Below are positions 1 through 20,883 of a stretch of DNA of 30,569 bases, piece by piece. Under the pieces are notes generated by a model, which was given only the letters and a program-made list of their open reading frames with translations, searched no databases and was not told where the DNA came from. How positions within the stretch are numbered: position 1 is the first letter of the stretch; each line of letters begins with the position of its first letter. Source of the stretch: a virus. The stretch covers positions 1-30,569 of IMG/VR virus record IMGVR_UViG_3300047546_002701; one strand, 5' to 3'. The position numbers and the translations under genes were made by a program.

Positions 1-214
1 TATTAGAAGTAAGTATATCGGATATAATTTGTAAATTTTTTATATAATCATTATTAATTGGTTCTCCGTTTTCTGCGTAAAAACATTTATATCCATTATT
101 AAAATATGGTAATATTTGATTAAAAAAATCTATTATTTCCTCTCTATTGTAAGAAACAAAAATAGGTCTTTTTATTACAATAAAATTATCAAATATATCC
201 ACTATATTTTTCAT
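1..214 (-). CDS. Unrecognised protein, N-terminal fragment cut by window edge
   Basis: An ATG at 214-212 opens a frame that stays open for 71 codons to the left edge, so the C-terminus lies outside the window. The start overlaps the stop of the RmlC-like gene by four bases (ATGA), the coupling seen throughout this cassette, which supports it as a real gene. The visible product begins MKNIVDIFDNFIV and is rich in Ile, Asn, Phe and Tyr. I see no cofactor or catalytic motif and do not recognise the family. Its position downstream of two nucleotide-sugar enzymes suggests another sugar-pathway protein, but that is only context. Confidence 0.75.
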   Translation of the reverse strand, partial: MKNIVDIFDNFIVIKRPIFVSYNREEIIDFFNQILPYFNNGYKCFYAENGEPINNDYIKNLQIISDILTSN

Positions 215-756
215 CTATCTCTTTTTTGTAATATTGGATTATTTGTAGGCCATTCCATTTGAAATTCCGGGTCATTCCACTTAACTACATATTGTTCATC
301 CGCATCCACATAACCATCTTTGTAAAATAGGTTATAATGAAACATACAATCAGTTAATGCGTAGTGTCCGTTTGCAAACCCCGGTGGAACTAATATCTGA
401 TTCCTTAATCTTTCGGTTATAATAAATGATTCCCAATCTCCATAAGTTGGTGAATTCTCTCTCATATCCAAAACAACCAAATAAATATCACCTACTGCTG
501 CTTGAACCAACTTCCATGTCTTTTTATCCCAATGTAATCCTCTCAATACACCCTTATAAGAACGAGAAAATCTTCCGTGAATAGAAAGTTCATTCTTATC
601 ATAGTGTATATGATTCATTACAGGATGTTCTTCCGAATGGTATGTTGTGAATATCTCACCTCTATATTCTCTATAAACCGATGGTTGGAATATCGGAACA
701 TCATAACCAAATTTTTTAGATGGAGTAATTTGGAACTCATCCCACTTGTTACTCAT
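211..756 (-). CDS. RmlC-like dTDP-sugar 3,5-epimerase (cupin)
   Basis: The 181-residue product matches the dTDP-4-dehydrorhamnose 3,5-epimerase family in length and motif order: FSRSYKGVLRGLH at 63-75, with H75 in the place of the catalytic base; KLVQAAVGDIY at 82-92; VLDMRENSPTYGDW at 95-108; PPGFANGHY at 124-132; and a terminal WNDPEF..EWP block at 160-170. The family epimerises C3 and C5 of a 4-keto-6-deoxy sugar nucleotide in the cytoplasm. The first 50 residues match RmlC less well, so the substrate may not be the rhamnose precursor. It sits one base downstream of an SDR epimerase gene, which fits a two-step sugar-nucleotide conversion. No RmlA or RmlB is in the window, so the precursor would come from the host or from genes further left. 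Confidence 0.85.
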   Translation of the reverse strand: MSNKWDEFQITPSKKFGYDVPIFQPSVYREYRGEIFTTYHSEEHPVMNHIHYDKNELSIHGRFSRSYKGVLRGLHWDKKTWKLVQAAVGDIYLVVLDMRENSPTYGDWESFIITERLRNQILVPPGFANGHYALTDCMFHYNLFYKDGYVDADEQYVVKWNDPEFQMEWPTNNPILQKRDR

Positions 757-757
757 A

Positions 758-1723
758 TTATGCTTTATTTGCGTATCCTAATGGAAATCCATTTCTGAAT
801 TCTGCACCCATTTTTGGAACTATCATTTGATACCCTTGAATCAATTGTTTAATACCTCTATCTAAATCCCATTGTGGTAACCAACCAGTCGCTTCTATTT
901 TAGCGTTTGATACGATGTAATCTCTTTTATCGGGGTCCTCATAAAAATCGTTGTATGATACCGCAAAATCCTTTACATGGGATTGTATCTTTTCCAATAG
1001 TTCCTGCTTTGAAAGGTTTGCAGAGCTTAATCCTACATTAAATACTTCACCTTTATATTCATCGTAGTGATTTATCATAAAAAGAAATGCAGATGCTACA
1101 TCTTCAATATGAATAAAATTTCTTTTAAATGTCTTTTCAAACACCACAATGTATTTATCAGTAATTGCTTTGTAAACAAAATCGTTTACTAACAAGTCGG
1201 TTCTCATTCTTGGTGATACGCCAAATACAGTAGCTAATCTAAAAGTAATTGCAGATGTGTTTGCTCTTAGGAAATTTTCTGCATCACATTTAGTTTGTCC
1301 ATAAACTGATATCGGTGTAAGAGGCGATTCTTCGGTACATTCGGTTTGTCCAATACCAATTCCATATCCACTATTTGTATTTGGATATAAAATCTTTTTA
1401 TCTTTAGCAAATCTTACAATATTAAAGATTTGGTCAAAATTAATTTCCTTTGCTAATTTAGGGTCTGCTGCACAAGCAGGAAATCCAACTATTGCCGCTA
1501 ATGGTATAATCACATCAGCTTCTTTACATAACTGCTCTAATAATGATTCGTTACGAACATCTCCATATATGAATTTAAATTTAGGATATGATGTATATTG
1601 TAAAAGAGAAGTTTGATTAAATAATAGTTTATCTAATACTGTAACTTCATATCCTACATGTAGGAATCGTTCAACCATAACTGAACCTAAATAGCCTGCT
1701 CCGCCTGTAATTAATATTTTCAT
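758..1723 (-). CDS. NAD-dependent nucleotide-sugar epimerase/dehydratase (extended SDR)
   Basis: This is a 321-residue extended short-chain dehydrogenase/reductase. The N-terminal Rossmann motif GGAGYLG is at 7-13, and Asp31 at the end of beta-2 (VTVLDKL) favours NAD over NADP. The catalytic YxxxK is Y141-K145 (SVYGQTK), with NTNSGYG at 115-121 in the place of the active-site Ser/Thr strand. The family oxidises and re-reduces sugars attached to UDP, GDP or dTDP. The exact reaction (4-epimerase, dehydratase or reductase) cannot be read from the sequence. The gene is followed after one base by the RmlC-like gene, and the two probably act on the same sugar. The ATG start lies one base beyond the stop of the LamG-like gene upstream. 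Confidence 0.88.
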   Translation of the reverse strand: MKILITGGAGYLGSVMVERFLHVGYEVTVLDKLLFNQTSLLQYTSYPKFKFIYGDVRNESLLEQLCKEADVIIPLAAIVGFPACAADPKLAKEINFDQIFNIVRFAKDKKILYPNTNSGYGIGIGQTECTEESPLTPISVYGQTKCDAENFLRANTSAITFRLATVFGVSPRMRTDLLVNDFVYKAITDKYIVVFEKTFKRNFIHIEDVASAFLFMINHYDEYKGEVFNVGLSSANLSKQELLEKIQSHVKDFAVSYNDFYEDPDKRDYIVSNAKIEATGWLPQWDLDRGIKQLIQGYQMIVPKMGAEFRNGFPLGYANKA

Positions 1724-1724
1724 T

Positions 1725-2492
1725 TTAAAAATAAATGTTTTCTAAAGTTGCTTTTGATAAATAATTTCCATTGTGAGTCAATTCCCACACTTTATATCTA
1801 TTTTGTTGTTTAAAATCTAAGAAAAATGCTAAATCTTTTTTATAAGGGGTTTCATCTCTAAACACTCTTAAATCTTCTAAAAACTCAACTAAGTCTTTTT
1901 CATATCCATATGCCATCGATTGCATTTCATTTAATGAACGTAAACCTTTTATTAAGAAACACATATCAAATTCACACTCTAAATACATTGCTATATCCGG
2001 CACTTGAAAATTACCATTACCAAACTGATAAAATCCTCCGCCACCCATTTCACCAAATTTATAAGATTGTTTATCTTTTTCAACATATTCTTTTGTATCT
2101 ACTAATTTTGAATTCACATATACTGTAAACGTTTTTGAATTAGTATCATCATTTAATACAACTACTTCAATAAAATCATTTACTTCTGATTCATTTAGTG
2201 TGTGATGAAATTGTACAAAAGTATCATCGGTGAACCAATAAGTCCACATTAATGTAGTGATATCAAAACCATCGTTACTTTTTACTTTATAAAAAGATAA
2301 TCCAGAATGTTTACCACTTCTACCAAATGCAAATCCTTCTTGCCCATATTCCATTGTTTCTGGAAATATTTTTACTTTTAGGTATAATGAAAAATCATCA
2401 TCCATAAAGGTATCGATTTTTCTATCCGTAATATCATATCTACTTTCAGGTAGGATAACCCAAGGCTCTTCTTTTTTTACTAATAAACTCAT
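1725..2492 (-). CDS. Stand-alone LamG/concanavalin-like protein
   Basis: The frame can be opened at a GTG at 2516, but that start would overlap the radical SAM gene by 20 bases. The ATG at 2492 sits four bases after that gene's TAA, matching the usual local spacing, so I chose it (255 residues). The product has no signal peptide or membrane segment. Its alternating beta-strand character, the segment FTVYVNSKLVDTKEY, and a late LAFFLDF...ELTHNGNYL stretch resemble the LamG jelly-roll and its trailing segment in the three neighbouring GT-LamG proteins. Unlike them it has no glycosyltransferase part. A glycan-binding accessory protein is a guess from fold resemblance. The match is weak enough that another beta-sandwich family is possible. 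Confidence 0.6.
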   Translation of the reverse strand: MSLLVKKEEPWVILPESRYDITDRKIDTFMDDDFSLYLKVKIFPETMEYGQEGFAFGRSGKHSGLSFYKVKSNDGFDITTLMWTYWFTDDTFVQFHHTLNESEVNDFIEVVVLNDDTNSKTFTVYVNSKLVDTKEYVEKDKQSYKFGEMGGGGFYQFGNGNFQVPDIAMYLECEFDMCFLIKGLRSLNEMQSMAYGYEKDLVEFLEDLRVFRDETPYKKDLAFFLDFKQQNRYKVWELTHNGNYLSKATLENIYF

Positions 2493-2496
2493 ATTT

Positions 2497-3921
2497 TTAA
2501 ATTTGAATAGTTCCACAAAAATTATAAAATTCTTCCAATTCAGGGAATGTTTTTACAAAATTAGTTCCCCTTCTCTTATCATGCTCCGTAAAGTATTTGT
2601 GGAAGTTGTATCGGTTTCTAAGTTGCTTACCGGCATCTTGTGGTGATATCATCCAATCATATATTCTTTTTAATTTTTGTACCTCTATATCAGAGAATCC
2701 AATATATTTTGGTTCAAATACAGGAATTGCGTAGTATGTAATCAACTTAGTTTGTTCTAATATTTTTTTAGAAAAATCATAAGGTAATACTTGTACAGTT
2801 TGATGTAAAGGATATCTTAAATAAGATGAATCTAAGAATACTGCTGAATTCCAATATCTATCATAACTACCATATATGTCTTTTAGGTTATATACTTCTT
2901 TAATTAATTTATTATAATTAAATAAACTTAGTGCATTGTAGGTAGACATGAACGTAATAATAACTCTCGGGCATTTTGTTAAAATTTTATTTACGTTATC
3001 CCAAAATCTATTAAATTCTAATCCCGTTCTAATATAATCAGCTTGCTCTCCCCAGGTATCTACGGATGTAAAGATTACAATTTCGCTTGCTCTATCTTCA
3101 TCTTCAATTCGTTTTATTTTTTCAATAAACTTATCGATAAGTACATCCGGTGCACCTAAGTTAGAATTAAATGCCAATTTAAGTTGTTTATTTGGATTCT
3201 TTTGTTCAATTATATAATCCAATACTTTCCAAGTATCTTTTGCTAATAATGGTTCACCACCTGTTATTCTAAAAGTATGTAAATCTCTATACAAATCAGG
3301 CCACCATTTCCAAAATGCTTCAACGTATGGGTTATAATCTTTTTGAGCGATTGGCATTTTGTGTTCTTCAATCAAATATTGAGTATCATTAAATCTATCG
3401 GTTGTAGGATAGGCACCATATTGTTCAATTTCTTCTACCCATTGAGAACTGTATGCAGGTCCACAATATGAACATTTGAAATTACAAGCATTACTAAATG
3501 CAACCTCAACATATTTTGGATTAAAATCATCTCTCCAATCAGAACTTTTAATTTGTTCCATAAATGGTAAAGACCAGCTTTCTGAAGATTTAAATATTCT
3601 ATCAGAAAATATGTTTGAATTATCTTCTACACCCCAACAATAATCACACTCCGTTGGTCTTGCACCACTTAACATTTCTTTTCTACGAAGTTTTTTATAT
3701 CTCGTATTATGAAGTGCAGATGGGTTTCGTGCAATCTCTTGCGGTGAAATTGCGTGAGTGCGTGGGTGGTGACATGAGTGGTTATGTCCAACTTGCAACG
3801 ATAACGTTACTTGTGTCCATTTTGCCAAACACATACCCGGTCCAACTGCATCTAATGTTTTCTTCGTATTTACATACAAAGGGTTTTGTTGTTCTAAATC
3901 AACTTTAAATTTATCTGACAT
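2497..3921 (-). CDS. Radical SAM enzyme with extra N-terminal cysteines (twitch-type)
   Basis: This 474-residue protein has the radical SAM 4Fe-4S motif CNFKCSYC at 146-153 (CX3CX2C) and TGGEPLL at 220-226, the SAM-binding GGEP motif. The core therefore spans about 135-360. Ahead of it lie further cysteines: C31, C50 in SCHHPRTH, and C92/C95 in ECDYCW. They could bind an auxiliary cluster, as in the twitch/SPASM-related radical SAM proteins seen in phages. The C-terminal part (about 380-474) has no recognisable motif. The substrate is unknown. The gene overlaps the end of the lipoyl-domain gene by 11 bases and is followed by the lone LamG gene, inside a sugar cassette. Modification of a sugar, a peptide or the carrier domain are all open. 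Confidence 0.88.
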   Translation of the reverse strand: MSDKFKVDLEQQNPLYVNTKKTLDAVGPGMCLAKWTQVTLSLQVGHNHSCHHPRTHAISPQEIARNPSALHNTRYKKLRRKEMLSGARPTECDYCWGVEDNSNIFSDRIFKSSESWSLPFMEQIKSSDWRDDFNPKYVEVAFSNACNFKCSYCGPAYSSQWVEEIEQYGAYPTTDRFNDTQYLIEEHKMPIAQKDYNPYVEAFWKWWPDLYRDLHTFRITGGEPLLAKDTWKVLDYIIEQKNPNKQLKLAFNSNLGAPDVLIDKFIEKIKRIEDEDRASEIVIFTSVDTWGEQADYIRTGLEFNRFWDNVNKILTKCPRVIITFMSTYNALSLFNYNKLIKEVYNLKDIYGSYDRYWNSAVFLDSSYLRYPLHQTVQVLPYDFSKKILEQTKLITYYAIPVFEPKYIGFSDIEVQKLKRIYDWMISPQDAGKQLRNRYNFHKYFTEHDKRRGTNFVKTFPELEEFYNFCGTIQI

Positions 3922-4153
3922 TATTTTCTATTTTAGCTATTATACTATTAATTGGTATTCTTTTACCTTCTTCTATTCCTATATAGGTTATATATCCACT
4001 TTCCCAAACTTCTAAATCCATAACGGCTTTATCAGTTTCTATTTCAGCAATTATATCACCCGACTTTACATAATCTCCTACTTTAACAAACCAAGTTACT
4101 AATAAACCCGTTTCCATTGTATCAGTCATTCTTGGCATCAGTATATCACTCAT
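3911..4153 (-). CDS. Free-standing lipoyl (E2-type) carrier domain
   Basis: The whole 80-residue product is one lipoyl domain. It begins MSDILMPRMTDTMETG, like the first strand of 2-oxoacid dehydrogenase E2 proteins, continues with WFVKVGDYVKSGDIIAEIETDKA, and has the acceptor lysine at K42 in the ETDKA turn. Biotin carriers have MKM at this turn, so lipoate is the expected cofactor. After attachment by host lipoylation enzymes, such a domain would carry acyl, aldehyde or aminomethyl groups between active sites. There is no E2 catalytic domain, no E1 or E3 subunit and no lipoate ligase in the window. It starts in a four-base overlap with the upstream GT-LamG gene and ends inside the radical SAM start, so it is translated as part of the cassette. 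Confidence 0.92.
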   Translation of the reverse strand: MSDILMPRMTDTMETGLLVTWFVKVGDYVKSGDIIAEIETDKAVMDLEVWESGYITYIGIEEGKRIPINSIIAKIENNVR

Positions 4154-5616
4154 TTCTTTATGGTTTTTACATTTACCATAAATGCATTTGGAATATCCAT
4201 TATCTGCTCTTTACTGATAAATTCATATCTTTCTTTTGCATTTGATAATCCATCGCTTTTATAATTGATACTACCTTGCTGCATATTTAATACATATCTC
4301 CTTTCGTTTGCAGCAGTAGTTTCACCTTTTGCCCATTTCTGAATTCCTCCAACTTCAATAATACCTTCCGTTTGATGTGGTAAGCATTCAAATTTACCAT
4401 CTCTTCTATATGGTAATATTGTAGATGGTACTTCTATATTTTTTGATTCTATTTCTACATTTTGATTTACTAATCTATGTTTTAAATAAGAATCATCTTT
4501 TGCCATACCATTAAATGATAGATTTAAAATAGCTGTTTTTTCAAAAGCATTTTCAAAAATACTATTTTTAACTTCATCATTATTAAATGCTTTATTCCAA
4601 ACTTTAATTTTAGCAATATCTCCTTTAAACCATTTAGCATATTTTTGAGTTCCCGGTGATGGTGTGTGTCCAACAAAAAATGGTTCAACTCCATATCTCT
4701 TTAATGGTGATTCGAAATACATAGGTGAATTTGTGCCTGTACCATTTCTGGCATCGCTTTCATTTCCATTCATATAAAGATGCATCTTTTTATTTTTTGC
4801 ATCTAATACCATCGTTACCCAACTCCATTGATTTTCATAACGTTTCATCCATTGATATATGTGATTCTTTTTGGAATCCCATAGCATAGCAGTATATGCT
4901 CTACTATTATTAAAAGATAGTCCCCAATCGTAACCAGGTTTTCTGAATATTGGGTATTCTACAAATTGTCTTTTTGTATCGCCAATTAACCAAATCGGAA
5001 CTTTTTCTATTTGCTGGTCAGCCTTTACCAAAACTGAAATGGTATGTGAATCAGAAATTGCGTTTCTTAAATTATTAGATGGTAATATTTCTAATAATGA
5101 GTTTATACCATTAAACTTACCATATGATTGGTTTTCTATTGTTTGATGAATTTTTTTATCAACCATTCCCTCCAAAACACATCTCCAAAAAAGGTCATCA
5201 TCTTCCATACCCCAATCCCAATAATCATTTGAATAACCATTGGTTTTATATGCTTGCTCTTTACTAAATAAAACTGCTCCTCCAAAGTATTCTTCATACT
5301 TTAAATTGTAATCAGATTGAGATATACGAACTGCTATGTGTTGTGGATTATCGGTTGGAAATGAATAATCACAACTCTCATCTTCTGGCACCATATCAAT
5401 ATCGTGCCAAACTATATAATCACACCCATCTTCAAATGCAACAATTGCTGCTACATTTTTCATCAATCCTCGATTGAATAATTCATCATCATTTTGATGT
5501 CCTAAATATATAGCATGCTCAATTCCCCTTTCATTTAAAAATTTATGAATATGGGGAACAAATCTTTTTAAGTGCTCTTCTCTATTTCTATATGGTACAC
5601 ATACACCTAATTTCAT
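4150..5616 (-). CDS. Beta-1,4-galactosyltransferase-like enzyme with inserted LamG domain (copy 1)
   Basis: In this 488-residue protein, residues 1-160 follow the GT7/B4GalT catalytic fold: PYRNREEHLK at 8-17, FNRG at 47-50, the metal-binding HDIDMVP at 71-77, YFGG at 110-113, and GYSNDYWDWGMEDDD at 127-141 with the acceptor/catalytic EDDD at 138-141. Residues about 165-385 form a LamG-like jelly roll (SFNGMAKDD at its end). B4GalT features then resume: H414 in ECLPHQ, in the place of the metal-ligand His, and KSDGLSN...Y at 453-464, the family's terminal segment. Expected chemistry is metal-dependent transfer of a sugar from a UDP donor. There is no signal peptide, so it acts in the cytoplasm. 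The catalytic residues look intact. The gene ends in a four-base overlap with the lipoyl gene. Confidence 0.87.
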   Translation of the reverse strand: MKLGVCVPYRNREEHLKRFVPHIHKFLNERGIEHAIYLGHQNDDELFNRGLMKNVAAIVAFEDGCDYIVWHDIDMVPEDESCDYSFPTDNPQHIAVRISQSDYNLKYEEYFGGAVLFSKEQAYKTNGYSNDYWDWGMEDDDLFWRCVLEGMVDKKIHQTIENQSYGKFNGINSLLEILPSNNLRNAISDSHTISVLVKADQQIEKVPIWLIGDTKRQFVEYPIFRKPGYDWGLSFNNSRAYTAMLWDSKKNHIYQWMKRYENQWSWVTMVLDAKNKKMHLYMNGNESDARNGTGTNSPMYFESPLKRYGVEPFFVGHTPSPGTQKYAKWFKGDIAKIKVWNKAFNNDEVKNSIFENAFEKTAILNLSFNGMAKDDSYLKHRLVNQNVEIESKNIEVPSTILPYRRDGKFECLPHQTEGIIEVGGIQKWAKGETTAANERRYVLNMQQGSINYKSDGLSNAKERYEFISKEQIMDIPNAFMVNVKTIKK

Positions 5617-5617
5617 A

Positions 5618-7078
5618 TTATAAAAGTACAGACAAAAAATGATAGTTTTTAATCGTTGCCTCGTTTAATAATTTATATGTACAATTTGATAATCCATCAG
5701 ATTCTACATTTGTTAAGTTTCTGGAAATATTGTTAAAAAATCTTATTTGATTTTGGCGAGTATTTCTAGTTTTCCATTTACCATCAGTATATCCATTTTC
5801 TCTATGAGATAATAGTTTTATCAAAGATTTTCTTCTTTTTGGAACATATACATCAAATTCATCTGAAACATCGATTTCAACTAAATGAGTTTGGTGTGTA
5901 GATGCATCATTACCATTACCACTTAAATCTATCAAAGTTCTATTCCTTGTTATGCAAGTATCATAATAACATAATAGTTTTTCTGAAGATTTATATTGTT
6001 TAAAATTTTCAGTAAGTGGATACATTCTGTTTTCTGATATTGCTTTTATTTCCGATGGTGAAAGTATTCCATCATATACCGCAAATTCTTTAATTACGCC
6101 TTTAAACCAATTACCATCTTCATTTCTATACGGGTCTCCACAACCTAAAAAGAAAGATGCTTCATCTTTATAATTTTTTATTTTAGCAAATTCTTTCACT
6201 TCTTTACCATCTCTGTTATAAGTGCGTGATATAGTTGTTTCTCCTATAAACTCACCATCTTTATACATTGATATTTTTCCATTTAAGAAATCTAAATTAA
6301 ATACAATATTTACATATGAATTAATTGATATTTCAGAGTTTATAGCATACGCATTATTATTTGTATCCCAAGTTTCTACTTTATATCTTTTGAATGAATT
6401 AAAACTTATATTTGTATCATAGCCAGGAATAGAAAAAACTGTATAATCATCCCATTCTTTATTCGGACTACAAACTATACTATCTGCTTTAAATTTTACT
6501 ACTACACTTCTTGAATTTTTAAAATCAAAAATATCATGCAGTTTATCAATTTCAATATAAGAATTTTTACCATTAAAATATAATCCTTTTACTTTAGCAT
6601 CGGATTTTATTATCTTTTTATCTAAAGATAATCCGGCTTGCTTACATCTATATAGAAGGTCATCATCTTCAAATCCCCATCCCCAATAGTCATTTGAATA
6701 TCCATTTATTTCTTCAAACGCTTGCATTGGAAAAATAGTTATACCTCCAAAGTATTCATCAAATACTATTCTTTTGATATTTGGATTATCTTCAAAACCA
6801 GTTGCTAAATGTATTGGTGTTTCTGAATATGAATAATCCACCTTAATTGGTATCATATCCACATCGTGAAACGCAACATATTTACAACCTAATTTTTTGG
6901 CTCTTTCAAATCCTATATTTAATAACTTACCTCTATTAAAAGGTTTCTCATCTAATTGTTCTACTATAATCAGTTCATATTGAATTGATTGTTTTTTTAG
7001 AGCAGCATCAACACTTTCTCTAAACATCTTTAGATGAGCTTCTCTATTTCTATATGGAACAATTATACCTAGTTTCAT
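5618..7078 (-). CDS. Beta-1,4-galactosyltransferase-like enzyme with inserted LamG domain (copy 2)
   Basis: This 486-residue paralogue of the next gene downstream keeps the full motif set: PYRNREAHLK at 8-17, FNRGKLLN at 47-54, HDVDMIP at 71-77, YFGG at 109-112, and GYSNDYWGWGFEDDD at 126-140. A LamG-like domain occupies about 163-400; its trailing segment LIDLSGNGNDAS at 382-393 is typical of such phage LamG modules. After it come KLLSHRE (H425) and ESDGLSNCTYKLL at 459-471, equivalent to the C-terminal end of animal B4GalT. It is probably an active GT-A glycosyltransferase with a built-in lectin-like domain. Donor and acceptor cannot be assigned. Its ATG shares one base with the stop of the 93-residue gene (TAATG), and its stop is one base before copy 1. 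Confidence 0.87.
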   Translation of the reverse strand: MKLGIIVPYRNREAHLKMFRESVDAALKKQSIQYELIIVEQLDEKPFNRGKLLNIGFERAKKLGCKYVAFHDVDMIPIKVDYSYSETPIHLATGFEDNPNIKRIVFDEYFGGITIFPMQAFEEINGYSNDYWGWGFEDDDLLYRCKQAGLSLDKKIIKSDAKVKGLYFNGKNSYIEIDKLHDIFDFKNSRSVVVKFKADSIVCSPNKEWDDYTVFSIPGYDTNISFNSFKRYKVETWDTNNNAYAINSEISINSYVNIVFNLDFLNGKISMYKDGEFIGETTISRTYNRDGKEVKEFAKIKNYKDEASFFLGCGDPYRNEDGNWFKGVIKEFAVYDGILSPSEIKAISENRMYPLTENFKQYKSSEKLLCYYDTCITRNRTLIDLSGNGNDASTHQTHLVEIDVSDEFDVYVPKRRKSLIKLLSHRENGYTDGKWKTRNTRQNQIRFFNNISRNLTNVESDGLSNCTYKLLNEATIKNYHFLSVLL

Positions 7079-7364: not shown

Positions 7365-8837
7365 TTAGTTTAGTTTAACTGAAATTTTTTTTATGTTTTT
7401 ATCTATTTTTGTTTCACCCATAATTTTATAACTTACACTTGATAATCCAAATTTAGGAATATCTTTGTTTTTTGATTTTACTGATTCATAAAAGAATATG
7501 TTTTCATTCTCTATAAAATTTGGGTTTGGAGTTTCATAATTATAATTGTCTAATATAGTGAATTTTTCTGAATTTTCCAAAACTTTAAATTTACCAATAT
7601 CGGATTCTGGCATATTAAATTTATACGAATATTGAAAATCTTCTTCTACTATTTTTTTATGATTTGATATTAAAATCTGTCTAGCGTGGTTTTTTAAGCT
7701 AGCGGTATCAATATAAAACTGTCCAACCATTTTATTAAAAGATATATCAATGATTGGCTCAAATGTAGTAAGCCCCTTATCATAGTTTTCTTTGAATACT
7801 AAATCAATTTCAGTATCGCTTAATGCATAATCGAAACATAATAAATTTGAGATTTTACCATTTAATTTATTTTTAAAGAAAAGAGAGCCTAACCAAATAT
7901 CTTTTTGAGAAAAATCCATAAGTAATTTAGATGTATCAAAAAATACTTCATCTACTAAACTACCATTTATAAATAATGATACTATTCCCTGAACTGTATC
8001 AAATCTTAAAGTTATATGCGCCCATTTATCTTTAATATCCAAATGATTCCACCATATTTGTATCAATCCACCATCTTCAAACCAATGTTGAAAAACCATT
8101 GCTTCATTATTTTTAATGAATAATCCAACATCATATCCTTCTTTTGCTATTAATGTTCCATCCTGTGTTAAATCGCCATTAATGAAAGTATCAAATGATA
8201 ATGTAAAAGAATCTTGAAATAAATTATCTACTATTGGATTGGATTTTATCATTAAAGAATCTCCATCTGAAAATTCAAATGATGTTAATTTTTTTGTAAC
8301 TTCGTATTCATTTTCAGTAACATCAATTAATCTATGTGGTTTGTATATGTCTTTATTGAAGAATTTTATAGTAGGAAGAAATACATTGTATTTATTCATT
8401 CTCCATAGTAAATCCATATATTCAAACCCACCATCCCAATAATCATTACTAAATCCATTTATTTTTTCAAAATCTTCTTTTGATATTTTAAATACTCCAC
8501 CAATATAATGTGGATATGGTTTTCCATTTTTAATATCTGAAATATTAGAAGCCATATGTATCGGATTTAAGAATTGGTCTGAATAATCACAATTATCGGT
8601 TATCGGAATTAAGTTCACATCGTGAAATATGAAATAATCGCATTCATCTTTTAGAAGTTTGTAGCCAACATTACACAGACTACCATAATTAAATAAATCG
8701 GGAGAATGTTGCTCTATAAAATAGATTGTATAATCTATCTTATCAGCTAAGAACCACTGCATGTGTGCAGAGAATTTGTATAGTTCTTCGTTTCTATCTC
8801 GTATCGGTACAATAATACCTAACTTTTTCTTTGACAT
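7365..8837 (-). CDS. GT7-LamG paralogue with degenerate catalytic motifs (copy 3)
   Basis: The frame also contains a TTG six bases upstream (8843), but the ATG at 8837 gives the natural start MSKKKLGIIVP (490 residues). The architecture matches the two paralogues: GT7-like 1-165, LamG about 185-395, then a C-terminal remnant. Key residues differ. FNRG is FNYG (49-52), the metal motif DVD/DID is DVN (73-75), and EDDD is EYMD (139-142). YFGG is YIGG. The expected metal His after the LamG is not evident (VLENSEK at 419-425), and SDGL reads KFGL (462-465). GINGFSNDYWDGGFE-type spacing is kept, so the fold is probably intact. This suggests an inactive or repurposed glycosyltransferase whose LamG may still bind glycan. 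Confidence 0.82.
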   Translation of the reverse strand: MSKKKLGIIVPIRDRNEELYKFSAHMQWFLADKIDYTIYFIEQHSPDLFNYGSLCNVGYKLLKDECDYFIFHDVNLIPITDNCDYSDQFLNPIHMASNISDIKNGKPYPHYIGGVFKISKEDFEKINGFSNDYWDGGFEYMDLLWRMNKYNVFLPTIKFFNKDIYKPHRLIDVTENEYEVTKKLTSFEFSDGDSLMIKSNPIVDNLFQDSFTLSFDTFINGDLTQDGTLIAKEGYDVGLFIKNNEAMVFQHWFEDGGLIQIWWNHLDIKDKWAHITLRFDTVQGIVSLFINGSLVDEVFFDTSKLLMDFSQKDIWLGSLFFKNKLNGKISNLLCFDYALSDTEIDLVFKENYDKGLTTFEPIIDISFNKMVGQFYIDTASLKNHARQILISNHKKIVEEDFQYSYKFNMPESDIGKFKVLENSEKFTILDNYNYETPNPNFIENENIFFYESVKSKNKDIPKFGLSSVSYKIMGETKIDKNIKKISVKLN

Positions 8838-8853
8838 AACCAAATATAACCTT

Positions 8854-9708
8854 TTATATAGATATAATTTCTTTTAATAAAACACTCCAATTTTTGTAAT
8901 TTTCGTAGTTTGCAGTTGGACAAAATTCGAATTTGTATAAAGAATTTTTGATATTTAATTTAAATCCATTTGAACGTAGTGATTGATACATTTTTAGATA
9001 TTCATCGGAATATGCATAATCTTTTTTAATATCTGCTACGGCTTTAATTCTATCAATTGATGTTGAATCCCATTTAAAATGATGTACTTGCACATTATAT
9101 TCATCTATTGGTGCTATTGTTCTGTTATGCAATTGTGGTCCCCATAATGTTTTTGTTCCACTTTTAGCATAATGTTGTCCATTTGTTATTTCTACTTTAC
9201 CTTTAACAACGCATATTTTATTTGGACAAGCTTTACTCATTGGGTATCTAAAAAATCCAGCCATTGGAAATTGGCTGAATAAATTTTGGTTTGATTTAAA
9301 TGGTTTTATTTCATTAAACTTACCATCTTCACCAATTCTATCAATAAATCCACCTCTTACTATATCCCATCCATTTTCATCACATTCTTTTACCATTTGA
9401 TGAAGTGGTTTAGAATAAACATGGAATTCATCATCATCGGAAACTACCCACCAATCATTTGGATATAAATCTTTTATAGCGTTATAAATGGATGTCACTG
9501 TTTCCCAATTATACTCTTGTTCATCCGAATGTTTGTATAATTTGATTTTACTACCAAACGAATCACAAACTTTTTTTACATTTTCATATTGATTATTCTT
9601 AGTATCATAAGCTACAACATATATTTCGTCAACAATATCAATATAATGTTGTAGCATATATGGTAAAGTTGTTGTTCTTGCTCCCGTTACAGTAACTAAT
9701 CTTATCAT
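8854..9708 (-). CDS. GT-A glycosyltransferase (family 2-like)
   Basis: This 284-residue protein has an N-terminal Rossmann-like half. MIRLVTVTGARTTTLPYML is followed by EIYVVAYD at 28-35, and the metal/nucleotide motif WVVSDDDEF is at 87-95 (D91-D93). The C-terminal half has ITNGQHYAKSG at about 175-185 and VQVHHFKWDS, a His-rich motif of the glycosyl transferase family 2 subset that acts on polysaccharides. Conserved ordering suggests a metal-dependent, nucleotide-sugar-using enzyme. No membrane segment is visible. Its ATG overlaps the methyltransferase stop by four bases. Its stop is 16 bases from the degenerate GT-LamG start, the longest gap inside the cassette. Confidence 0.8.
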   Translation of the reverse strand: MIRLVTVTGARTTTLPYMLQHYIDIVDEIYVVAYDTKNNQYENVKKVCDSFGSKIKLYKHSDEQEYNWETVTSIYNAIKDLYPNDWWVVSDDDEFHVYSKPLHQMVKECDENGWDIVRGGFIDRIGEDGKFNEIKPFKSNQNLFSQFPMAGFFRYPMSKACPNKICVVKGKVEITNGQHYAKSGTKTLWGPQLHNRTIAPIDEYNVQVHHFKWDSTSIDRIKAVADIKKDYAYSDEYLKMYQSLRSNGFKLNIKNSLYKFEFCPTANYENYKNWSVLLKEIISI

Positions 9709-10469
9709 ATTTTGTTTTTAGTAACTATTGATAATCCAGTAGATGTAGTTTTATGTGTAAAGGTAATAAAATTTTTTAAATTTACCAAATTATATTTAGA
9801 ATTATTTTTTAATTCTTCAATAAATTTTGCAGGCCCATCAAATTCTGCAAAATCCGTTTTTTGTGTATCTGGAACTAAAAACGTATTATGATAGTTTTGG
9901 TCTGTATCGTGAATCGTAATTATTCCGTTTTCAGACATTATTTGTGAGTATAATTCAAAATCTTTTTTAACTCCTTCATATGAGTGGTCACCATCTATAT
10001 GTAAATAATCGATTTTAATATCCTGTCTTACAAAATAATCGTAATATGCTCTTTCTGATGTTTCAATTATAACTTGCGGTGCAAAATGTTGTCTTAGAAA
10101 TGAATTTTCTTCAGTCCAATCCGTATATCCACCAATACCATTAGCGGCATCTATTATTATTGTAGTTCCAATATCACCCCATTCATTAGATGAGTTTCCT
10201 TCAAATATTCCTTGCTCCCATAAATCGTGGCGAGATTGTGTCATCAAACGGGGTATAAACCCACCACCCGTTCCAATACATACACACACCTTTGCTCTAA
10301 TAAATTGTATCAGAGAATATATCAGCAAACCATCACCTAAGTGTAAATCAGTTGCACCATGTGACCAACGATATTTTACAGGCTCATATGATATATTACC
10401 ATCATCATCTTTTGTATGATTATTAGTAATAAAATTTTTTACTAAATTTAAATTGATAAGACTTTGCAT
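9705..10469 (-). CDS. Class I SAM-dependent methyltransferase (Methyltransf_24-like)
   Basis: This 254-residue protein has a Rossmann-type methyltransferase core. VCVCIGTGGGFIPRL at 61-75 is the SAM-binding glycine loop, IIIDAANG at 104-111 is the next strand, and IDYLHIDGDHSYEGVKKD at 153-170 is a signature of the Methyltransf_24 family, which includes sugar O-methyltransferases. GIITIHDTDQNYH at 182-194 completes the core. The D/H pairs could bind a metal, as in related O-methyltransferases. In this cassette, methylation of a sugar hydroxyl on the glycan being built is the likeliest role (inference). The gene start lies 22 bases inside the GT-B gene, and its stop overlaps the GT-A gene by four bases. 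Confidence 0.83.
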   Translation of the reverse strand: MQSLINLNLVKNFITNNHTKDDDGNISYEPVKYRWSHGATDLHLGDGLLIYSLIQFIRAKVCVCIGTGGGFIPRLMTQSRHDLWEQGIFEGNSSNEWGDIGTTIIIDAANGIGGYTDWTEENSFLRQHFAPQVIIETSERAYYDYFVRQDIKIDYLHIDGDHSYEGVKKDFELYSQIMSENGIITIHDTDQNYHNTFLVPDTQKTDFAEFDGPAKFIEELKNNSKYNLVNLKNFITFTHKTTSTGLSIVTKNKI

Positions 10470-17579: not shown

Positions 17580-17759
17580 ATGAAATACGCTATGTTGCAA
17601 ATAAAAAAAGAAACCCACGAACTTCTCAAACAATATTGTGAAGAACATGGGTTTAAGATGGGAAGTTTAGTTGAAAATTTAATTAAGAAACACGTTGGTG
17701 TTACTAAACCTCAAGCGGGTGTGTTAAGAGCTGATAAGGTTAAAAATCAATCTTACTAA
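17580..17759 (+). CDS. Small ribbon-helix-helix-like DNA-binding protein
   Basis: A 59-codon gene runs from ATG at 17580 to TAA at 17757-17759 and is the only convincing plus-strand gene. The product begins MKYAMLQIKKETHELLKQYC, then EEHGFKMGSLVENLIKKHVG. A short strand (3-8), a helix (11-22), a GFKMG turn and a second helix (27-39) fit the Arc/MetJ/CopG ribbon-helix-helix fold, which dimerises through the strand to contact DNA. A basic tail (40-59) follows. It diverges from the tail-fibre gene and converges with the SbcD-SbcC gene, overlapping its last 20 bases. The phased repeats just upstream could be its operator. It could also be a small nucleoid-type or anti-host protein. Similar short proteins occur in T4-like phages (recollection, not searched). 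Confidence 0.8.
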   Translation: MKYAMLQIKKETHELLKQYCEEHGFKMGSLVENLIKKHVGVTKPQAGVLRADKVKNQSY

Positions 17760-20700
17760 ACCCATCTATCTTTTTTATCTCTATCAATCCATCTACGATA
17801 TCTCTCATTTGTTCTAAGTGAGAAATCATCCAAATGAAATCAAATTGAGTTTTTAAATATTGCATCATCATAAATAATGATGATAAGTTATTAGCATCTA
17901 ATGTACCAAATCCCTCATCTATTACTAAGAAGTTAGGACGTGGTAGGTTGCATATGTTAATCAGAGCTACTCTAATAGCCAAACCACTTACGAACTTCTC
18001 CATACCACTACACATTTCTAATGGCCATTCTTGGTCCTCATAAACAATCTTTGCATTAATAGATTTACCATCGATATCCATTACGATACTAAAATCTACA
18101 ACCTGCGCAAGTATATTATTGATTTCATTTTCAATAACAGGCATTGCTTTCGAAATAAGTTCGTATGGTACACCATCTCTCTTTACAGAATCGATATAAT
18201 AGGTGTATAGGCGACTCTTTTCTTCTAAGTCCTTAACTTCATCCATCTTATCCTTTACATTGTCTATAAACGATTGTATTTGAGTAATAGAGCTATTCAA
18301 ATCAGATATTTGTTTGTTAAGCGTTTTTACTTCCGATTCTATTTCGCTCTTTGTTCTATTTAGTCCATCGATAACCGATTCTATTTGTTTATTACGTTTA
18401 ATAGTATCTTCATTATCGTGGTATCTTTGAATATCTGCGTTTACTTGCTCCAATTGAGTATCATACAATTGTTTTTGAGTTTCAAATCCATTTAATTCTG
18501 CGATTGTTTTTTCTTTAATTACAATTGCTTTTTGATACTTAGATTTTAACTCAACTAAAGAGTCCCATTGTTCTTCCACATCTGCAATATAAGATGCCTG
18601 TTGAATTAACGATTGATGTTTGTTTCCTAATTCCGTTAATTTATCTTCTTGCTCCTCTACTTTAGATTTTGTTTCTAACGCATCTTTTACGAATACATTA
18701 TTCATGCAAAACTTACAATTTGGGTCATATTCGTGCTTTTCTAAATGCGAAAGTTTTTCCCTATTGGATTCCAAAGATTGTTCTAATAGCTGAATTTGAT
18801 GTTCGGTTTCATTTATCTCACTTTTATACTCATCCCATTCCTTTTTAGCATCTTCGATTGGTTTACCATTTATAATTTTGTGTTCTTCAATCGATTGAGA
18901 TATTTCGGAAATGTTTTGAGTATATTCATCTAACTTTTCTTTCTTATTTTTTTCTTCTGAAAGTACGTGTAGAATATCAAATCCAATTTGGTTCTTTTTC
19001 TTTTCTAATTTATCTAAATCTAAATTTGCATCTACCGGCACTAACTCTTTTGTTAATCCTAATATTCTATTAGATAAATCTTCTACATCATTTGTTTTTG
19101 TTTCTAATTCCTTTTCCTTTGCTCTTAGTTCCGATTTCTTTGTTTGCTTTTCTAAACCTTTTTCAGCCAACTCTGTCGTAAAGTCGGTTTTCTTAAAATT
19201 TTTGATAAGTACTGCTACTTCCTTTATATCTTCACTTGCCGTTTCATATAATTTATCGAATATATCCAATCCCATAAATTGTGCTAACAAATCCTTTCTC
19301 TCCGATTGTGATTTATCAATGAATAAAGCATTGTTACCTTGTAGAGATAAAGCAGTTAGGACGAAATCTTCGTACTTACCAACGTATTGTTCAATTACTA
19401 CATTTGTATCCCTTCTCTCCGTTCCATTTAAAGATGTGATTGTACCTCCCTCATCTTTCCAAAATTGTACATCCACTTTAACGTTCTTTCCTTTGTTGAT
19501 TGTTTTAGCAGTTCTACTAATATGGAAATCCATTCCATTAACTTGGAAATGTAGGTGGCATTCGAAATCCTTTTTACGATTGTTCATAATGTGAGTAGCC
19601 TTAAATGCTCTACTACACTTATCGAACAGGCAGAAGGAGATTGCATCAAATAGGGATGATTTACCACTAGCGTTTGGTGCGAATAATCCCATCAATCCTC
19701 CTACTTTGGCGAAATCGATTTTGTTGTTTTCACCATAAGAGAACATATTACTGAATGTAAACTTTATGGGCTTCCAATGTATATTTCTATGTACTTCTTC
19801 TTGCGTTATTCTACTATTGATATCTCTATTAATTGCTTCTAAACCATCTAAATCCGCAGTAGTTGTAAATGGCATCATTCTTTGAACATAATCTTTTATC
19901 AATGTGTTTTGATAGTTGATATCGGATATATCTTCAAAATCTAATTTGTTTAATCTATTACCTGTTTTTTGTTTATTGAATGAATCGGTTCTAATAATTG
20001 TGAAATCATCAACACCATATCTCATTTTAATTTCGGTGATTACTTTCTTTGTATCAGCGGTATCGGTATTAGATAAACGAACTCTCAAACGTGGATTTTT
20101 TGGCATATCGGTTACAACCGGCACTACGCCATTATCTACATCCAATGTGTAATATCCATAATCATTTGGAATATCGATTGCTTCATATTTTAATGATGCT
20201 ACATCCCAAACTAAGAATCCGTGTCCGTTTAAACTCTCACCAAAGTTTTGTTGTACCAATGAACCGGCGTAAACTACCTTACATCCGCTTGGAGAAATCA
20301 TAGTTTGTCTTTTGTGGATGTCACCCAATAGAGCTAAATCGTATCCATCAAACATATCAGTTGTAAAATGTCTACTACTTACAACATACCCCACATCGGT
20401 TTGTGAATTATCAACAGGTCCGTGGAATAGTGCAATCTTTTTGTTTCCAAATAGTGTTTCTGCTTTAGGCCAATTATCTTTCTTATCAAAGATTGAAAAT
20501 ACAGCGAAATCTACACCACCAACTGAATACACTTGTGTATCTCTAAGATAATGAAAATTTGGTAGGTTTAAAGCCTCTACAATAGGTGATAATACATCTA
20601 ACCTATCCGAATTGTTCATATTACAATCGTGATTACCTGCGATTAGGATTGTTTCACAATGTTTAGAACATTCGGTAAATAGCCAACTAATCTCTTTCAC

Positions 20701-20883
20701 CAACTCTGGTGACATTTCTAATTTAGCATGTGCAATATCACCTGCTAAATAAATGAGTGAATCTTCCGTTCCTCTTTTACGGATTTCTTCAAACATTTTT
20801 TCAAAAACCGCTCTATACTCTTTGTGTCTTTGTACATTACGAATATGAATATCCGCAATATGGTAAATTCTTTTTAAACTCAT
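17740..20883 (-). CDS. Fused SbcD-SbcC (Mre11-Rad50/gp47-gp46-like) recombination nuclease
   Basis: In this 1047-residue protein both subunits of the DNA-end-processing complex are joined. The N-terminal 230 residues are an Mre11/SbcD metallophosphoesterase: DIH at 11-13, GD at 48-49, GNHD at 83-86, H154 and GDIH at 187-190. From about 368 comes a Rad50/SbcC ATPase: Walker A APNASGKSS at 402-410, long coiled-coil arms, a CKFC zinc hook at 723-726, and Walker B FLVIDEGFGTLD at 985-996 with a final His in MISHLEQ. The ABC signature is CSGMEKF near 958-964 rather than LSGGE. The complex resects ends and feeds recombination-dependent replication. In T4 the two parts are separate genes 47 and 46. 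Its ATG overlaps the primase stop by four bases. Confidence 0.93.
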   Translation of the reverse strand: MSLKRIYHIADIHIRNVQRHKEYRAVFEKMFEEIRKRGTEDSLIYLAGDIAHAKLEMSPELVKEISWLFTECSKHCETILIAGNHDCNMNNSDRLDVLSPIVEALNLPNFHYLRDTQVYSVGGVDFAVFSIFDKKDNWPKAETLFGNKKIALFHGPVDNSQTDVGYVVSSRHFTTDMFDGYDLALLGDIHKRQTMISPSGCKVVYAGSLVQQNFGESLNGHGFLVWDVASLKYEAIDIPNDYGYYTLDVDNGVVPVVTDMPKNPRLRVRLSNTDTADTKKVITEIKMRYGVDDFTIIRTDSFNKQKTGNRLNKLDFEDISDINYQNTLIKDYVQRMMPFTTTADLDGLEAINRDINSRITQEEVHRNIHWKPIKFTFSNMFSYGENNKIDFAKVGGLMGLFAPNASGKSSLFDAISFCLFDKCSRAFKATHIMNNRKKDFECHLHFQVNGMDFHISRTAKTINKGKNVKVDVQFWKDEGGTITSLNGTERRDTNVVIEQYVGKYEDFVLTALSLQGNNALFIDKSQSERKDLLAQFMGLDIFDKLYETASEDIKEVAVLIKNFKKTDFTTELAEKGLEKQTKKSELRAKEKELETKTNDVEDLSNRILGLTKELVPVDANLDLDKLEKKKNQIGFDILHVLSEEKNKKEKLDEYTQNISEISQSIEEHKIINGKPIEDAKKEWDEYKSEINETEHQIQLLEQSLESNREKLSHLEKHEYDPNCKFCMNNVFVKDALETKSKVEEQEDKLTELGNKHQSLIQQASYIADVEEQWDSLVELKSKYQKAIVIKEKTIAELNGFETQKQLYDTQLEQVNADIQRYHDNEDTIKRNKQIESVIDGLNRTKSEIESEVKTLNKQISDLNSSITQIQSFIDNVKDKMDEVKDLEEKSRLYTYYIDSVKRDGVPYELISKAMPVIENEINNILAQVVDFSIVMDIDGKSINAKIVYEDQEWPLEMCSGMEKFVSGLAIRVALINICNLPRPNFLVIDEGFGTLDANNLSSLFMMMQYLKTQFDFIWMISHLEQMRDIVDGLIEIKKIDGFSKIDF

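What the first reader, a model, noticed from the sequence alone, without database searches (positions are those of the whole stretch)
3911..4153. Phage-encoded free lipoyl domain with intact ETDKA acceptor lysine
A complete, single-domain lipoyl carrier is unusual in a phage, and nothing else of a 2-oxoacid dehydrogenase or glycine cleavage system is in the window. It may carry an activated two-carbon or acyl unit for a sugar modification, partner with an E1-like gene beyond the left edge, or compete for host lipoate and dehydrogenase partners.
Basis: partly seen in the sequence, partly recalled or inferred. Interest (0 to 1): 0.72.

Follow-up and report, generated by a model that had tools for sequence, protein, structure and literature searches.

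The report
Phage free lipoyl carrier in sugar operon
A T4-like phage carries a small stand-alone copy of the lipoic-acid-bearing arm of pyruvate dehydrogenase inside a sugar-modification operon, and a sister phage shows stripped-down pyruvate-dehydrogenase-like enzymes further down that same operon, hinting at a private two-carbon transfer system.

Summary
Window 3911-4153 (minus strand) is a complete 80-aa PDH-E2-type lipoyl domain with acceptor Lys42 (PF00364 E 3e-19) and no other E2 part. The guess of an E1 beyond the left edge is borne out in the one close relative found (G001, lipoyl 86% identical, same gene order): an E1-alpha-like gene (211 aa) lies 3.7 kb downstream and an E1-beta-like gene (180 aa) further on. 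They belong to a conserved phage family of minimal ThDP E1 proteins tied to an RmlC-like epimerase: 35 of 38 comparable loci with RmlC have E1-alpha, 0 of 30 without. The window has RmlC and SDR but ends too soon, so E1 in its own phage is inferred. Against obligate pairing: 0 of 100 other records, including all 80 E1 records examined, carry a lipoyl domain, and the mini-E1 lacks the parts that in PDH engage lipoyl domains and E2. The gene is a clean insertion in a cargo slot, kept by purifying selection. Best reading: a host-lipoylated carrier recruited to a two-carbon sugar pathway, at about even odds; a host-PDH effector is the main rival.

The parts
3911..4153 (-). free lipoyl-domain protein, 80 aa; Lys42 codon 4028-4030
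2497..3921 (-). twitch-domain radical SAM protein (NF033640, 348 bits); start overlaps the lipoyl stop by 11 nt
4150..5616 (-). glycosyltransferase family 7 domains fused to a laminin-G-like domain; stop overlaps the lipoyl start (ATGA)
1725..2516 (-). unassigned 263-aa protein between radical SAM and SDR (no Pfam family)
758..1723 (-). NAD-dependent epimerase/dehydratase (SDR), YxxxK present
211..756 (-). RmlC-like dTDP-4-dehydrorhamnose 3,5-epimerase family protein; next to or near E1-alpha in relatives
2..214 (-). left-edge partial ORF; not E1-alpha; matches (E 1e-10) a gene lying in the E1 module of L064
5618..7078 (-). second glycosyltransferase 7 + laminin-G fusion
7365..8843 (-). third glycosyltransferase 7 + laminin-G fusion
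8854..9708 (-). glycosyltransferase family 2-like
9705..10469 (-). Methyltransf_24 methyltransferase

Best explanation
The ORF is a PDH-E2 lipoyl domain freed of the rest of E2, taken up by a phage lineage into a cargo slot of its glycan/nucleotide-sugar operon. The host's lipoylation enzymes attach lipoate to Lys42 (inferred). The operon of this lineage also encodes a minimal two-subunit ThDP enzyme (mini-E1 alpha and beta; shown in the sister phage, inferred for the window) which probably makes a ThDP-bound two-carbon unit from pyruvate or a ketose and puts it on a keto-sugar prepared by the RmlC-like epimerase and SDRs, as the E1-like pairs AviB1/AviB2 and Plm8/Plm9 are held to do. The free lipoyl arm would accept that two-carbon unit (as acetyl, from the mini-E1 or from host PDH E1) and deliver it to the sugar or to a further carrier, widening what the pathway can make. 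Shown: the domain, its operon, E1 genes in the sister, conserved E1 catalytic residues, selection. Inferred: lipoylation, loading by E1, sugar as acceptor.
For: The lipoyl gene overlaps both its neighbours in a sugar operon. Sister contig G001 has lipoyl, radical SAM, SDR, RmlC and E1-alpha in one run and E1-beta 9.8 kb on. RmlC predicts E1-alpha: 35 of 38 loci with RmlC against 0 of 30 without; 20 of 21 loci with the SDR at 75% identity or more. E1 catalytic positions are invariant: R71, H73, H75, G139, D140, E167, N169 in 80 of 80 E1-alpha; E59 and H128 in 71 of 71 E1-beta, the last two aligning with human E1-beta. The E1-alpha model (pLDDT 89.5) has PDH E1-alpha as top PDB matches. The slot holds other modification genes in relatives: a methyltransferase (L025), an SDR (L137). 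Purifying selection. E1-like pairs adding two-carbon branches are described in PMC4425429 and PMC4802897 (passages).
Against: 0 of 100 other related records have a lipoyl domain, all 80 E1 records examined among them, so mini-E1 works without one. The mini-E1-alpha match ends near human residue 212 of 365 and so lacks the region with the loop His (H271 alpha in Geobacillus E1p) proposed to assist transfer to lipoate; mini-E1-beta lacks the C-terminal domain (PMC2663715 passages). Two Nanoarchaeota MAGs with mini-E1 have no PF00364 match at all. A second free phage lipoyl gene (G102/G103) has no E1-alpha in its 17-18 kb fragments. E1 in the window's own phage is not seen. The passages read on AviB- and Plm-type systems do not mention a lipoyl arm ('lipoyl' 0 occurrences in PMC4802897).
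Confidence: 0.48

Rival explanations
1. Host-PDH effector: the free domain is lipoylated and competes with E2 lipoyl domains for host E1, E3 or the lipoylation enzymes, damping or redirecting host PDH flux during infection; its place in the sugar operon is only a convenient slot.
For: Sequence is that of a PDH E2 lipoyl domain; the six homologues outside this phage group whose reading frames were opened were parts of E2 or lipoylated E1-beta; E1 phages do without it; no carrier partner is conserved with it.
Against: Overlapping reading frames with sugar-operon genes and glycan cargo in the same slot in relatives.
Confidence: 0.22
2. Carrier for host E1: host PDH E1 loads acetyl on the phage arm, which donates it to a phage glycan enzyme (O- or N-acetylation); the mini-E1 is a separate lipoate-free carboligase.
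For: Mini-E1 lacks the lipoyl-engaging loop and the E1-beta C-terminal domain while the carrier is a canonical PDH type; E1 without lipoyl is the rule.
Against: No acyltransferase family among the operon proteins scanned with Pfam.
Confidence: 0.18
3. A captured fragment without a carrier role (structural hammerhead or neutral hitch-hiker).
For: Only two phage lineages carry such genes in the scans.
Against: dN/dS 0.10 over dS 0.61, intact EIETDKA and frame in both relatives.
Confidence: 0.08

Closest known systems
Lipoyl domain of PDH E2 (PF00364; TIGR01349, PRK11892 models)
   Same: fold family, EIETDKA motif, sequence similarity over residues 3-75
   Different: stand-alone 80 aa; no peripheral-subunit-binding or acyltransferase domain
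AviB1/AviB2, Pau11/Pau12, Plm8/Plm9 two-carbon branch systems (PMC4425429, PMC4802897)
   Same: E1-like alpha and beta pair in a cluster with a 3,5-epimerase and sugar oxidoreductases
   Different: bacterial antibiotic clusters; Pau11/Pau12 are 325 and 345 aa against 211 and 180 here; no lipoyl arm mentioned in the passages read; phage product unknown
Cyanophage 'transketolase central region' proteins (S-SM2 SSM2_198, P-TIM68 gp190)
   Same: same mini-E1 family, there fused alpha+beta, in sugar gene clusters
   Different: no lipoyl domain in either genome, nor in LR756501 (0 of 3)
Free lipoate-binding proteins GcvH and LbpA (GcvH recalled; LbpA: PMC6067878, start of abstract in a search listing)
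   Same: small stand-alone lipoate carriers
   Different: no GcvH model among the 18 NCBIfam matches; best matches are E2

Membership tests
PDH-E2-type lipoyl domain | Biotin_lipoyl domain over the curated cut-off | tested here: met
   69.1 bits against 22.1
PDH-E2-type lipoyl domain | acceptor lysine in a DKA motif | tested here: met
   EIETDKA, K42, same in G001
PDH-E2-type lipoyl domain | covalent lipoylation | not testable with these tools
   needs mass spectrometry
PDH E2 subunit | peripheral-subunit-binding and acyltransferase domains | tested here: not met
   80-aa ORF with lipoyl/biotin-type and HlyD matches only
Biotin carrier protein | MKM-type biotinylation motif (motif recalled) and best match to biotin models | tested here: not met
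   DKA in place of MKM; BCCP model 22 bits against 77 for E2
GcvH (glycine cleavage H) | match to a GcvH model | tested here: not met
   none among 18 NCBIfam matches
AviB1/AviB2-like two-carbon branch system | E1-alpha and E1-beta homologues in a deoxysugar cluster | tested here: inconclusive
   met in sister contig G001; not visible in the window
AviB1/AviB2-like two-carbon branch system | two-carbon branched sugar product | not testable with these tools
   needs chemistry
PDH E1 heterotetramer of a lipoyl-dependent complex | E1-alpha C-terminal region with loop H271 alpha and E1-beta C-terminal domain | tested here: not met
   E1-alpha 206-212 aa in 80 of 80 loci, E1-beta 169-181 aa in 69 of 71; profile matches end at human 212 and 188

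The most novel reading that the evidence does not exclude
The phage encodes a private miniature pyruvate-dehydrogenase-like machine: a half-size ThDP E1 (PP and PYR domains only) and a detached lipoyl arm, with no E2 or E3, which moves two-carbon units onto nucleotide sugars or glycans rather than onto CoA.
Probability: 0.27. Interest if true: 0.82.

Novelty: new variant of a known kind. Interest (0 to 1): 0.62.

Why it matters
Free lipoyl carriers are few: GcvH and LbpA are the ones considered here, and the searches made showed no report of one in a phage. If the arm serves the mini-E1, lipoate chemistry has been detached from CoA metabolism and turned to glycan building by a virus. If it serves host PDH, it is a new way for a phage to tap central carbon. 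Apart from the lipoyl gene, the work shows a conserved phage family of minimal ThDP E1 proteins bound to sugar epimerases, which makes the guess that E1-like pairs build two-carbon branched sugars testable with small proteins.

Tried and rejected
Phage lipoyl hits in GenBank: 10 records; the three opened were parts of E2 genes, one of them in an aco operon with lipA, so read as host DNA; the other seven were not opened. Idea that the left-edge ORF is E1-alpha: rejected. Search for a contig that extends the window to the left: none. Fold of the lipoyl domain from a two-row alignment: poor (pLDDT 58), not used. Idea that the twitch radical SAM protein needs the lipoyl domain: rejected, since 548 viral relatives were found and of the 80 loci kept only the sister's holds a lipoyl ORF. 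Bacteroidota as source of the domain: suspected from recall, not tested. Nearest terminase (of G001) is that of Flavobacterium phage immuto, 54.6%, with a Microcystis phage at 52.3%, so the host is open. Treede 2005 was not held and is known only through PMC4425429.

Full report
What is there. The window is a 30,569-base virus record of IMG/VR. Position 3911-4153 on the minus strand holds an 80-aa ORF that is a lipoyl domain by the libraries used: Pfam Biotin_lipoyl 69.1 bits, NCBIfam E2 and lipoylated E1-beta models first of 18 matches, PDB E2 chains with E 3e-26. PHROGs has only a weak match of unknown function (E 0.006). Lys42 sits in EIETDKA. The start overlaps the stop of a glycosyltransferase-7/laminin-G gene (ATGA) and the end overlaps the start of a twitch radical SAM gene by 11 nt. 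The rest of the operon is glycan-related: three GT7/laminin-G fusions, a GT2-like protein, a methyltransferase, an SDR and an RmlC-like protein. No E1 lies in the window.

The sister contig. One close relative was found by protein patterns: IMG/VR 3300021963_005655 (G001, 41,145 bases), lipoyl 86% identical, same order up to RmlC. There, straight after RmlC, comes a 211-aa protein with PF00676 (55 bits), and 9.8 kb after the lipoyl gene a 180-aa protein with PF02779 (29.9 bits). The window differs just there: its leftmost ORF is not E1-alpha but resembles a gene lying in the E1 module of L064 (E 1e-10).

A phage family of minimal E1. The E1-alpha occurs in 145 viral stretches, of which 80 were kept. 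In these 80 loci the alpha protein is 206-212 aa; 71 also hold the beta protein, of 169-181 aa in 69, with one of 143 and one open frame of 576. RmlC lies in 76 of 80 loci, within 150 bp of E1-alpha in 51 and 0.6-5.7 kb off in 25. Starting instead from the radical SAM gene (548 relatives, 80 kept), 68 loci have at least 8 kb downstream; 38 of these have RmlC and 35 of the 38 have E1-alpha, whereas 0 of the 30 without RmlC do; of 21 loci with the SDR at 75% or more, 20 have E1-alpha. The two sets share contigs. The window has RmlC and SDR, so E1 in its phage is likely but unseen. Catalytic positions are invariant: E59 and H128 of E1-beta align with human E1-beta. The E1-alpha model (pLDDT 89.5) has human PDH E1-alpha as top match in PDB. 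Of these 10 genomes 8 have PF00364 matches somewhere; the two Nanoarchaeota MAGs (possibly incomplete) have none. Isolated cyanophages S-SM2 and P-TIM68 carry the fused form in sugar clusters.

The lipoyl gene is an addition. PF00364 was sought in 100 other records whole (80 E1 records and 20 further radical SAM records): 0 of 100. In 101 listed GT/radical-SAM junctions (not independent: many contigs appear twice) 94 have the two genes abutting (-48 to +51 nt), three are the sister contig with the lipoyl gene, and four hold other genes or pairings: a methyltransferase in L025 and L026, an SDR in L137, and a second pairing in L086. So the place is a cargo slot, and relatives show the empty site. 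Between window and sister the gene has dN/dS 0.10 with dS like its neighbours: inherited in common and kept under selection. G+C is that of the operon.

A second lineage. An exact scan for codons of EIETDKA found 39 stretches, three with a lipoyl domain: the sister and two overlapping contigs (99.98% identical) of another virus, G102/G103. There the free domain (88 aa, PF00364 54.7 bits, 48% identical to the window's) lies at unassigned 373-aa and 312-aa genes. No E1-alpha is in those fragments. A profile-based scan with the three sequences gave the same three contigs and no more. These scans use patterns, so other forms could be missed.

How it may work. E1-like pairs AviB1/AviB2 and Plm8/Plm9 are described as adding a two-carbon branch to deoxysugars (PMC4425429 and PMC4802897, passages). 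The phage mini-E1 with RmlC and SDRs fits such a pathway. In PDH the E1-alpha loop residue H271 and ordered active-site loops are proposed to take part in lipoyl engagement (PMC2663715, passages); mini-E1 lacks that C-terminal region and the E1-beta C-terminal domain. This fits a lipoate-free carboligase and makes the free lipoyl arm an extra. I hold it most likely that the arm, lipoylated by the host (no PF21948 in 33 related records), takes two-carbon units from mini-E1 or host E1 into glycan making; a host-PDH effector is the chief rival. Loading, lipoylation and acceptor are inferred.

In print. Searches for a phage lipoyl domain or phage E1 in sugar operons listed no paper that, from title and start of abstract, describes it; one search counted 23 papers with both 'phage' and 'lipoyl domain', of which 20 were listed.

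Noticed in passing
L010-L089 (80 loci), L002:13939-14574, L005:6226-6768: A widespread phage family of minimal two-subunit ThDP E1 proteins coupled to RmlC and SDRs, annotated in cyanophages only as 'transketolase central region'.
   Followed up: yes
window 3911-4153; L025:5669-6349; L137:8880-9990: The slot between the GT7/laminin-G gene and the radical SAM gene holds different cargo in relatives: lipoyl domain, methyltransferase or SDR.
   Followed up: partly
L228:6188-6454: A second, independent free lipoyl-domain gene in another virus fragment that also has UvdE, SPFH and flavodoxin-like genes.
   Followed up: partly
window 4150-5616, 5618-7078, 7365-8843: Three glycosyltransferase-7 proteins each fused to a laminin-G-like lectin domain, near a large fibre-like gene with an S74 chaperone domain.
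   Followed up: no
window 17740-20883: Calcineurin-like phosphoesterase and AAA_23 domains in one 1047-aa ORF, like a fused SbcD-SbcC (T4 gp47-gp46; names recalled).
   Followed up: no
L042:8099-9826: E1-beta open frame of 576 aa, apparently continuing into another domain.
   Followed up: no
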